A stretch of DNA of 21,777 bases from a virus: positions 1 to 21,777 of IMG/VR virus record IMGVR_UViG_3300027708_000325; one strand, 5' to 3'. This document shows positions 1 through 21,777 of the stretch, piece after piece. A program made the translations under genes and the position numbers. The notes below the pieces were generated by a model. The model worked only from the letters and a program-made list of their open reading frames with translations, had not been told where the DNA came from and did not search any database. Position 1 is the first letter of the stretch. Every line of letters starts with the position of its first letter.

Positions 1-1241
1 CCATCATATGTATAAGTTCTACCATCATTAGTGTTTACCCAAACTTCTCCAACATATGGAGGTACTGGTTGAGCAGAGCCAATATTAAATGTACCTTGGG
101 CGCCTAACAGACCTTGAGTACCTGTCGTGCCTTGCGCACCCGTAGTTCCTTGAGTTCCAGTAGTTCCTTGTGAGCCTGTTGTGCCTTGAGAACCAGTAGT
201 TCCTTGAATACCTGTTAAGCCTTGGGTACCAGTAGTGCCTTGAGTACCTTGTATTGAAATTCCCTGAGTACCTTGCGTACCATCGTATCCTTGTAATCCC
301 TGTAGACCTTGTACACCTTGAGTACCTTGGGTTCCTTGTGTTCCTTGTAAACCTTGAGTACCTTGGGTTCCTTGTAACTGTGCATAACCAAAGCCTTGTA
401 GTCCTTGATTACCCTGTAAACCTTGAGGTCCTTGAATGCCTTGAATACCTTGCGTACCTTGAGATCCTTGAAGTCCAATTAATCCTTGAATACCTTGTAA
501 GCCATTAAAACCTTGTGCACCTGTTACGCCTTGGTTACCTACAATTTGTCCTACATTTATCCAGATAGTACCTGCCCAAACATATAAGTCTAAATCAGTT
601 TCATTAATGTAAGCATCATTAATAGTATTGTTTGTTGCGGGTAGTTGACTTACACTAGTGATGTAACCACGAATATTAATGTTAAGGCCTGGGTTACCTT
701 GAAAACCTTGAATACCTTGTAAACCTTGCAGTCCTCTAAAACCTTGTAAGCCAGTGTAGCCTTGCACACCTTGTACACCTTGAGTTCCTTGATTTCCAAG
801 ATTACCTTGAATACCCTGGGTTCCTTGTGTTCCCTGAACACCCTGTACACCTTGCGTGCCTTGTAAGCCTTGAACTCCTTGTAAGCCCTGTACGCCTTGA
901 GGTCCAAGATTACCTTGAATACCTTGTAATTGAGCATAGCCTAATCCCTGAACACCTTGTAGACCTTGTACTCCTTGATTACCTTGCAATCCTTGTACGC
1001 CTTGAGGTCCCTGAATACCTTGTAGCTGAGCATAACCAAAACCTTGTATACCAAGATTACCTTGCGTACCTTGAAGACCTTGAATACCCTGAGGACCGGT
1101 AGCAGCAATATTAGTAATGTCTGGGGAGAGAGGGTCTGGAATAAGATCAGAGGTTATATAAGTAATGCCTGGAGATACATCAGTAACGATAATAAGTTCA
1201 GTACATTGAGTACATGTTCCGCAGTTATCTAAGCAACTCAT
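1..1241 (-). CDS. Collagen-like tail fibre protein (3' end outside window)
   Basis: The reading frame starts at 1241 and stays open to the left edge, giving at least 413 residues. Residues 1-48 are non-repetitive and begin with a Cys cluster (Cys3, 7, 10, 13). From about residue 49 the protein becomes Gly-X-Y triplets rich in GTQ, GVQ, GLQ and GIQ. The repeats are broken three times by GYAQLQG and once, at about 184-234, by a globular segment with a [14 protein letters not shown] stretch. A second segment of that kind ([18 protein letters not shown]) begins near residue 387, just before the edge. Collagen-like triplets with such inserts are known in phage fibres and would form a trimeric rod on the virion surface for host contact. 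The ATG shares one base with the stop codon of the upstream gene (TAATG), so translation is probably coupled. Fibre assignment is inference from repeat type and position. Confidence 0.8.
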
Positions 1242-20280: not shown

Positions 20281-20504
20281 TTTAATTTCTCCTTAGACGA
20301 AATTAGTTAATTAGAGCCTCATTTTGAGCACTCTGCATGAAGTTTAGCATATTCCCCGCCATTTTTTCACCAACTATGATGAGAGTTACCCGTTTTTACG
20401 CTCACAACTTATCAAACTATGATCAAAGTCACAAATCGGACACTGCCTTGGCCACTGTATAGCTCAAAATAGTCCCAACCCTGCGTCTCACCTGGCGGAC
20501 AAAC

Positions 20505-20522
20505 ACGACTTAAACGACTTAA
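20505..20522. repeat. Tandem 9-mer ACGACTTAA x2
   Basis: Two perfect adjacent copies of ACGACTTAA, immediately followed by a G-rich tract (GGGTAGGGGGGG). It lies in the divergent control region and could be a protein-binding site. Confidence 0.6.
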
Positions 20523-20623
20523 GGGTAGGGGGGGACAAAGGTGTCGAATGTATTTTTTATCGTTGTATGTATCGGTAGGAAGCCGAGAGATACTGCGGGC
20601 GTGGTGCGCTCTGCTTCTTCTGT

Positions 20624-20680
20624 CCCTGCTAGGCGTCTAGTCTAGCAGGGGTGGTGGGAGCAGGGCGAGTGGCCCTGCTC
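20624..20680 (+). promoter_or_regulatory. Two tandem hairpins in the leader of 20705-21277
   Basis: First stem: CCCTGCTAG (20624-20632) with CTAGCAGGG (20642-20650), nine perfect pairs, nine-base loop. Second stem: GAGCAGGGC (20658-20666) with GCCCTGCTC (20672-20680), nine perfect pairs, five-base loop. The two are only seven bases apart and are followed by the perfect Shine-Dalgarno AGGAGG at 20691-20696. Both share a GCAGGG core with the hairpin after the gene. They may attenuate transcription, protect the mRNA 5' end, or belong to a larger structured RNA. Confidence 0.55.
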
Positions 20681-20704
20681 TCTCTCCCTTAGGAGGGGAG
20701 TATT

Positions 20705-21277
20705 ATGTCCACACACACACTAGCAACAGCGTTAGAGCCTATCTTCCTAGAAGAAGGCAATAGCGAAACAGCAGTAACCGCCCGCTTTGTAAAAGTGGCA
20801 GGGGTATTCGCACAATTCCCCCACAGCACAATAAACGACGCATCAGACCTAATAAAGTCTGATGAAGTCCGTCGTCTTGCTATGGGTGGTTGGTTGCTTT
20901 ATACCTACGGCGCAACTAAGGAGAACAAGACAGCCGTCTACAAGATGGCTCGTCTTGGTAAGTCCGAAGTGTATCGCTCTGTAATGAAAGCCGACACCTT
21001 CGAGAAGGTTGTCGAGTCATACAAGAAGGCGGTCAAGCGTCTAACTAAGGTAAGCCAAGCCAAGCGTCAAGAAGATAATACTTCTGGCGTAGGTGGCAAG
21101 GCACTCCTTAAGTCTGCTTCTCGCTTAGATGATGAGTCTATTGTCTTCACACCAGATGAAGAGCAAGATGACTACATCAAGGCACTCAAGGCGGTCATCA
21201 AGCGTTACGAATCTGCCAAGACTTCAGCGAAGGTCAAGGCAGTTATGAGCGCACCAGAGCCAGCGTTAATCTCCTAA
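20705..21277 (+). CDS. Plus-strand gene of unknown function
   Basis: 190 residues, start fixed by AGGAGG eight bases before the ATG. The protein is soluble and helical: LEEGNSETAVTARFVKVAGV, then GWLLYTYGATKENKTAVYKM and FEKVVESYKKAVKRLTKVSQ, a low-complexity centre (QEDNTSGVGGKALLKSASRL) and a C-terminal helix DDYIKALKAVIKRYESAKTS. It has no Cys, signal peptide or membrane segment. Codon use (CGT, AAG, GTC, many C-ending codons) and base composition differ from the AT-richer late genes. It is the first gene of a rightward, probably early, unit and is flanked on both sides by hairpins sharing GAGCAGGG. Function not recognised; a DNA- or RNA-associated regulatory role is only a guess. Confidence 0.8.
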   Translation: MSTHTLATALEPIFLEEGNSETAVTARFVKVAGVFAQFPHSTINDASDLIKSDEVRRLAMGGWLLYTYGATKENKTAVYKMARLGKSEVYRSVMKADTFEKVVESYKKAVKRLTKVSQAKRQEDNTSGVGGKALLKSASRLDDESIVFTPDEEQDDYIKALKAVIKRYESAKTSAKVKAVMSAPEPALIS

Positions 21278-21740
21278 TCGCATAACTCGGTAGAGCAGGG
21301 GGGGATTAGGTTCTCCCCCTGCCTCTATCTATGGTCATAGTCTCTATGGTCATAGATGGGGTATGCCGACCAATCGGCTCAGTGCTAGGTGTAATGTCTA
21401 GCCCCCCAGAGCAATCCACGCCCGCAATTCGGTGTCCTGCTAACGAATAGGCTCCCTATCTCCCATCATTGGGAGTGGGGAGTCTATTCAGGCTACTGTC
21501 GGCAACTATCTATGATCATTGTGAGTACCACCAGGCCTACGGCTAGGGGGCTACTCTATGAGCAGGTAGTTACTAGGTAGTTAGTGGAAGAGACATAAGA
21601 CTTATGACTGAGGCTTCTTAGTGAGCGTGTATGGTCTCTGTTCCTTATGTCTCTCTCACTCTCTATCTACACAGAGAGCCATCGGTATCCCCGCCGATTT
21701 TCGCCCGACATAAACAATCCCACCCACGAAAGGTAATGCT
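21278..21740 (+). ncRNA. Gene-free stretch rich in stem-loops: candidate structured RNA
   Basis: 463 bases without a convincing gene. Stems visible on paper: TAGAG+CAGGGGG with CCCCCTG+CTCTA (21291-21327, one bulge); a 14-pair hairpin with two G-U pairs and a UCU loop (21327-21357), built from two direct copies of CTATGGTCATAG; GCCGA/TCGGC (21365-21378); GCTAG/CTAGC (21384-21402); a long stem GAATAG-G-CTCCC-CTCCCA with TGGGAG-GGGAG-T-CTATTC (21445-21489); and AGAGACATAAG/CTTATGTCTCT (21589-21599 with 21644-21654). TGCCGAC (21364-21370) could alternatively close a multi-branch structure with GTCGGCA (21498-21504). The first stem may also serve as the terminator of 20705-21277. It could instead be a set of regulatory or terminator hairpins; expression is not shown by the sequence. 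Confidence 0.4.
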
Positions 21741-21777
21741 ATGAACGCAACCATCTATTGCGCTAAGTGCAAGAGCA
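21741..21777 (+). CDS. Start of a zinc-ribbon-like gene (3' end outside window)
   Basis: ATG with AAAGG eight bases upstream, then NATIYCAKCKS before the right edge. Cys-x2-Cys near the start suggests a zinc-binding protein. Only twelve codons are visible, so nothing more can be said; its orientation shows that the rightward unit continues past the structured stretch. Confidence 0.5.
   Translation, partial: MNATIYCAKCKS

What the first reader, a model, noticed from the sequence alone, without database searches (positions are those of the whole stretch)
21278..21740. Dense tandem stem-loops in a 463-base gene-free stretch: possible new structured RNA
At least five independent hairpins with 5 to 17 pairs follow one another, several perfect or with compensating G-U pairs, and a possible long-range pairing (21364-21370 with 21498-21504) would close a multi-branch fold. 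Dense phage genomes rarely leave this much space. Large ornate RNAs such as GOLLD are known from lake metagenomes and actinobacterial or lactobacillal phages, so a related or new RNA here is plausible. It lies between two rightward genes.
Basis: partly seen in the sequence, partly recalled or inferred. Interest (0 to 1): 0.68.

Follow-up and report, generated by a model that had tools for sequence, protein, structure and literature searches.

The report
New large structured phage RNA
Between two genes of an uncultured freshwater phage lies a long, intricately folded RNA that is kept at the same place in about forty related phages, by base changes that preserve its pairing, and that matches no catalogued RNA family; its job is not known.

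Summary
In detail: 21278-21740 is gene-free and folds far better than shuffled sequence (z -6.2). It is the most foldable of 94 window tiles. Homologues occur in about 40 related lake-phage contigs, always directly after a divergent ~180-aa first gene that points away from the Hsp20/HslV genes. Their helices covary: H2 has 7 pairs and T has 9 pairs changed on both sides, and no shuffle of 500 equals either. G-U pairs lie on one strand and the sense strand outscores the antisense in nearly every full H2 match, so it is an RNA, read rightward. No Rfam family matches. The structured stretch is larger than reported: it starts ~120 nt before ORF190, runs through its coding sequence and ends ~300-600 nt after it. 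ORF190 is an all-helical protein with no known relative. Best reading: a new family of large, modular, co-transcribed phage RNA, probably processed and working with the ORF190 protein. Existence and RNA nature are strongly supported; function is inferred.

The parts
20519..20534 (+). TTAAGGGTAGGGGGGG, conserved DNA block 150-225 nt before the ORF180 start codon; candidate promoter-side element
   Evidence: found at about -151 to -225 in roughly two thirds of 30 relatives, as TTAAGGGTRG(4-7)
20624..20650 (+). leader hairpin L1 (9-bp stem)
   Evidence: 120-nt windows at -120 have median z -3.66 in 33 relatives
20658..20680 (+). leader hairpin L2 (GAGCAGGGC...GCCCTGCTC)
20682..20700 (+). leader hairpin L3, which holds the Shine-Dalgarno AGGAGG of ORF190
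20705..21277 (+). ORF190 (ORF180 family): first gene of the rightward operon; all-helical protein of unknown family; its coding sequence is itself unusually foldable
21295..21322 (+). hairpin H1, 11-bp G-rich stem; base composition of the stem varies with pairing kept in relatives
   Evidence: 212 of 216 pair cells standard, shuffle maximum 167; stems were picked by MFE
21323..21361 (+). hairpin H2, 18 pairs, abuts H1; TATGNNCATA in each arm nearly invariant, NN covaries between arms
21365..21378 (+). hairpin H3 GCCGACCAATCGGC
   Evidence: sequence conserved in 11 genomes, little covariation
21384..21402 (+). hairpin H4 GCTAGGTGTAATGTCTAGC
21428..21441 (+). conserved segment TTCGGTGTCCTGCT before hairpin P
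   Evidence: GTGTCCTGCT identical in 11 genomes; GTGTCTTCTGTC in a second subgroup
21445..21489 (+). long hairpin P, 20 pairs
   Evidence: about 18-20 pairs in 11 diverged genomes, with changed stems in L145, L028, L144
21490..21497 (+). conserved segment AGGCTACT after hairpin P
21523..21535 (+). conserved segment GAGTACCACCAGG (ACCAGG in nearly all relatives)
21576..21667 (+). terminal hairpin T (arms 21576-21599 and 21644-21667), strongly covarying stem, apical part exchanged between relatives
   Evidence: at most one exact-or-near copy of its 3' arm per record
21659..21678 (+). alternative hairpin S (CTCTCT...AGAGAG) that shares bases with the 3' arm of T
   Evidence: sequence inspection
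21741..21777 (+). start of the next rightward gene (43-aa Cys-rich protein, complete in L001 6037-6168)

Best explanation
SHOWN: a large, modular structured RNA family encoded on the + strand as the 5' part of the rightward operon of a group of about 100-kb lake phages. It comprises a hairpin-rich leader, the ORF190 coding sequence and a 300-600-nt 3' domain (H1-H2, H3/H4, P, T). INFERRED: it is transcribed from the divergent promoter region together with ORF190, folds co-transcriptionally, and is cut out of the polycistronic transcript at its long helices (RNase III-type cuts, with hairpin S left as the 5' cap of the downstream mRNA). It then persists as a stable RNA that acts with or on the ORF190 protein early in infection. 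Confidence that it is a real conserved RNA is about 0.95; that the RNA itself, not only mRNA processing, is the product is about 0.5.
For: Folding z -6.2; 40 relatives, median z -7.45 sense against -4.38 antisense. Covariation in H2 and T, each 0/500 shuffles and well above slid registers; H1; P. Sense H2 matches outscore antisense ones, e.g. 64.9 against 26.1 bits, as G-U pairing predicts for RNA. Same position, right after the stop of the ORF180 gene, in 42 contigs although ORF180 has diverged to 8-30% identity to the window protein in nearly all. H2 once per genome in two nearly complete 100-kb genomes; T motif at most once in 18 records. Sharp z profile from -120 to about +300. Conserved segments outside the long stems (GTGTCYTSYTG, GGCTACT, ACCAGG, TATCAGGTA) are more than a processing signal needs.
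Against: No transcript data. No promoter fits in the 10-40 nt between the ORF180 stop and H1, so a free-standing ncRNA would need processing or a promoter inside ORF180. No intrinsic terminator was found after T. Structure in the coding sequence is not conserved helix by helix (covariation term only -0.96; +1.73), and other early genes downstream are also somewhat foldable (median codon-shuffle z -3.15). ORF190 has no recognisable RNA-binding fold.
Confidence: 0.55

Rival explanations
1. Cis-acting intercistronic element only: the hairpins are RNase III-type processing and stability signals that set different levels of ORF190 and of the downstream genes, with T/S as an alternative-hairpin switch before the next ribosome-binding site.
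For: Strict position between cistron 1 and 2, no own promoter or terminator found; long near-perfect stems of 18-21 pairs are the usual RNase III substrates (general knowledge); T and S share CTCTCT next to the following Shine-Dalgarno; start region of ORF180 also in hairpins.
Against: Conserved sequence inside stems (TATG..CATA) and in segments outside the long stems, and 300-600 nt of elaborate structure, exceed what processing sites need; subgroup-specific middle domains are kept.
Confidence: 0.35
2. Nascent-RNA antiterminator: H1-H2 are a put-like pair of hairpins that bind the transcribing RNA polymerase and let it read through the downstream operon.
For: Two abutting, covarying hairpins with invariant stem positions near the start of an operon; HK022 putRNA does this in early phage transcripts (abstract of PMC9378689).
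Against: It lies about 700 nt into the transcript, after a gene, and the rest of the element (P, T, middle domain) would be unexplained; no sequence comparison with put was made.
Confidence: 0.12
3. DNA-level feature: palindromic operator sites (CTATGNNCATAG twice) or a replication origin, with hairpins as a by-product.
For: Each arm of H2 is itself a near-palindrome and a similar CTATGATCATTG recurs near 21510.
Against: The NN positions covary between the two arms, G-U pairs sit consistently in one orientation, antisense scores are much lower, and sense folding exceeds antisense in relatives.
Confidence: 0.04
4. A divergent member of a known ornate RNA family such as GOLLD or ROOL.
For: Size and ornateness, phage origin, freshwater samples.
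Against: No Rfam match for GOLLD, ROOL or any other ncRNA family besides tRNA at gathering level in relatives; at E<=1 only tRNAs and sub-threshold chance-type hits; none of these families in the window to E 10; different position (between cistrons, not in a tRNA array).
Confidence: 0.03

Closest known systems
GOLLD RNA
   Same: Large, ornate, phage-encoded, conserved and variable parts; many members exceed 800 nt (PMC12286853)
   Different: No covariance-model match; here the RNA follows the stop codon of one particular gene family and takes in that gene's leader and coding sequence; not in a tRNA array
ROOL RNA
   Same: Large ornate phage/prophage RNA of unknown function (PMC12286853)
   Different: No covariance-model match; different position and modular make-up
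HK022 put RNA (antiterminator)
   Same: Stem-loop element in an early phage transcript that acts on RNA polymerase (PMC9378689, abstract only); two adjacent stem-loops (general knowledge)
   Different: Much larger, lies after the first gene; not compared by sequence or tested functionally
T7-type intercistronic RNase III sites (general knowledge)
   Same: Long hairpins between early phage genes
   Different: Conserved sequence motifs, branched middle domain and covarying modules over 300-600 nt

Membership tests
GOLLD | match to the Rfam covariance model | tested here: not met
   window; 12 relatives, gathering; 7 relatives, E<=1
GOLLD | lies near tRNA genes or in a tRNA array | tested here: not met
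   no tRNA in window or L001; relatives carry none to four tRNAs near Hsp20/HslV, not adjacent to the element
GOLLD | homo-oligomeric cage; expression rises at lysis | not testable with these tools
   needs cryo-EM and infection RNA-seq
ROOL | match to the Rfam covariance model | tested here: not met
put-like antiterminator | two adjacent stem-loops near the promoter in the nascent transcript | tested here: inconclusive
   H1 and H2 abut but lie about 700 nt downstream of the presumed promoter region
put-like antiterminator | makes RNA polymerase resistant to terminators | not testable with these tools
   needs a transcription assay
conserved structured RNA (general) | covariation beyond shuffled and shifted controls | tested here: met
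   shuffles do not model phylogeny, slid registers keep relatedness
conserved structured RNA (general) | transcribed in vivo | not testable with these tools
   no transcriptome at hand

The most novel reading that the evidence does not exclude
A new class of phage RNA that is at once mRNA and ornate RNA: leader, coding sequence and 3' domain together form one >1-kb folded particle, with exchangeable cassettes joined at TATCAGGTA, and the protein it encodes is its partner.
Probability: 0.2. Interest if true: 0.9.

Novelty: new variant of a known kind. Interest (0 to 1): 0.7.

Why it matters
Large ornate RNAs are few, and the functions of GOLLD and ROOL are poorly understood. A family with strong covariation, a fixed protein-gene neighbour, one copy per genome and about 40 diverged members gives a tractable RNA-protein pair for asking what such RNAs do for phages. 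These appear to be phages of freshwater actinobacteria: the nearest cultured terminases are from Streptomyces phages such as BRock (52%); the host is inferred.

Tried and rejected
Rfam at gathering and permissive thresholds: only tRNAs and chance-level hits. blastn in the phage collection with the window element and two divergent homologues: none. Cultured phages LuckySocke and DSL-LC01: no H2 match in the whole records. Bacterial/archaeal genome scan: one Diapherotrites hairpin, taken as chance because no other part of the element was seen there by blastn. First MAFFT alignments of H1 misplace its register, so H1 was counted structure-guided, which is biased towards pairing. Consensus folding of the ORF180 coding sequence gave no convincing shared fold, so only general foldability is claimed there. 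Protein family, PDB and fold searches of ORF190: nothing. tRNA or tmRNA in the window: none by ARAGORN.

Full report
Observation. The interval 21278-21740 is exactly the gap between the stop of ORF190 (20705-21277) and the next rightward start at 21741. It folds with z -6.2 on the + strand and -4.45 on the - strand, and a tiling of the window ranks it first of 94 tiles/strands.

Relatives. The window phage is also in IMG/VR as a 42-kb contig with an identical locus. Hsp20 and HslV queries brought about 160 loci of related phages, and blastn of the 463 bases hits dozens of them at the matching place and strand. In 42 distinct contigs the element follows the stop of a first gene of roughly 160-220 codons (start choice uncertain) that is divergent from Hsp20/HslV. 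H2 was recognised in 38 of these, one of them incomplete; three contigs (L131, L119, L113) carry a different 5' part but keep TATCAGGTA, and in one (L104) the contig ends inside H2.

Covariation. H2, aligned by MAFFT without structure: 93.8% standard pairs, 7 pairs changed on both sides, covariation score 0.253 against 0.177 shuffled, 0/500, and no slid register comes near (same on the wider alignment). T: 97.3% paired, 9 pairs and 32 cells changed on both sides against 3.7 and 5.4, 0/500. H1: 212 of 216 cells pair against at most 167 in shuffles (stems chosen by folding). P: about 18-20 pairs in 11 diverged genomes, replaced by unrelated but equally long hairpins in two further subgroups. These shuffles do not model phylogeny, but the slid registers keep relatedness and fail.

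RNA rather than DNA. H2 uses U-G and C-G interchangeably at the same pairs with G on the 3' arm, and a covariance model of H2 (R1) scores the sense strand well above the antisense in nearly all full-length matches, e.g. 64.9 against 26.1 bits for L013 and 56.6 against 29.3 for the window; a few low-scoring or partial matches are exceptions. In relatives the sense strand folds better (median z -7.45 against -4.38). H2 occurs once in the pieces of two nearly complete 100-kb genomes, and the T motif at most once in 18 records.

Extent. A profile of 33 relatives (120-nt windows) is flat upstream, drops at -120 (median z -3.66), stays low through the ORF180 coding sequence (-1.6 to -2.8), is lowest in the 3' domain (-5.7, -4.5, -4.2) and fades by about +300 to +600. 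Against synonymous-codon shuffles the ORF180 coding sequence has median z -5.4 in 30 genomes, HslV -0.57, Hsp20 -2.56, late genes -0.48; but other genes downstream in the same operon reach -3.15, and consensus folds of the coding sequence are not well conserved. So the coding sequence is unusually foldable, without proof of one shared fold. The element is not the only foldable place in these genomes.

Partner gene. ORF180 genes mostly have ribosome-binding sites and close relatives differ largely at third codon positions, so they are taken as real proteins. AlphaFold2 gives an all-helical model (mean pLDDT 83) with no convincing Pfam, PHROG, PDB-sequence, PDB-fold or viral-fold relative. Strict adjacency to the RNA suggests, but does not show, a functional link.

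Mechanism. Shown: a conserved + strand RNA structure between the first and second gene of the operon. Inferred: transcription from the divergent region (conserved TTAAGGGTRGGGG block about 150-225 nt before ORF180), excision at the long helices, accumulation and action with ORF190. The chief rival is a purely cis-acting processing/stability island. A put-like antiterminator role for H1-H2 is possible but leaves most of the element unexplained.

Known families. No Rfam family fits. It resembles GOLLD and ROOL in size and phage origin (PMC12286853) but fails their sequence/structure models and differs in position. Families published but not in Rfam 15 could not be checked, and the literature searches found no description.

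Noticed in passing
L097, L118, L120, L142, 3' domain after ORF180: The same 120-bp cassette with a short Cys-rich ORF (MSKELCDCGHTHKHCVCPTCPKCGYIECYCKEL...) sits between two copies of TATCAGGTA inside the RNA element of four otherwise diverged phages; a second, hairpin-like cassette (GGCTTAGTCCAGCC...) is shared by L028, L098 and L121. This suggests cassette exchange at TATCAGGTA.
   Followed up: partly
L119/L066 1067-1082, L131 5429-5444, L069 4780-4795, L067 4744-4759: parS-like palindrome TGTTNCACGTGRAACA (ParB site consensus, from memory); in L119 and L131 it lies in the same intergenic region, in variants without H2.
   Followed up: partly
L001 7670-8160 (also G002 21751-22000): A second gene-free, highly foldable stretch of about 490 nt two kilobases downstream, ending in conserved hairpins before a small Cys-rich protein gene.
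   Followed up: partly
leaders of ORF180 in L148, L112, L121, L147 and relatives: A ~12-bp stem with a 7-nt T-loop-like loop (TTCGATT, TTCGACT, TTCAACT), resembling the acceptor/T-arm minihelix of a tRNA.
   Followed up: no
window 20352-20367 and 21687-21703; L001 6382, 6658: Motif TCCCCGCCNATTTTC/TTTTTT repeated at gene junctions of the rightward operon, 3-4 copies per genome in the pieces scanned.
   Followed up: partly
leaders of L112, L128, L121, L110, L147, L150: Four copies of the iteron-like repeat CGGACAAA in the divergent region before ORF180.
   Followed up: no
window 3-1241, minus strand: Long collagen-like Gly-X-Y protein ([10 protein letters not shown] repeats) at the window's left end.
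   Followed up: no
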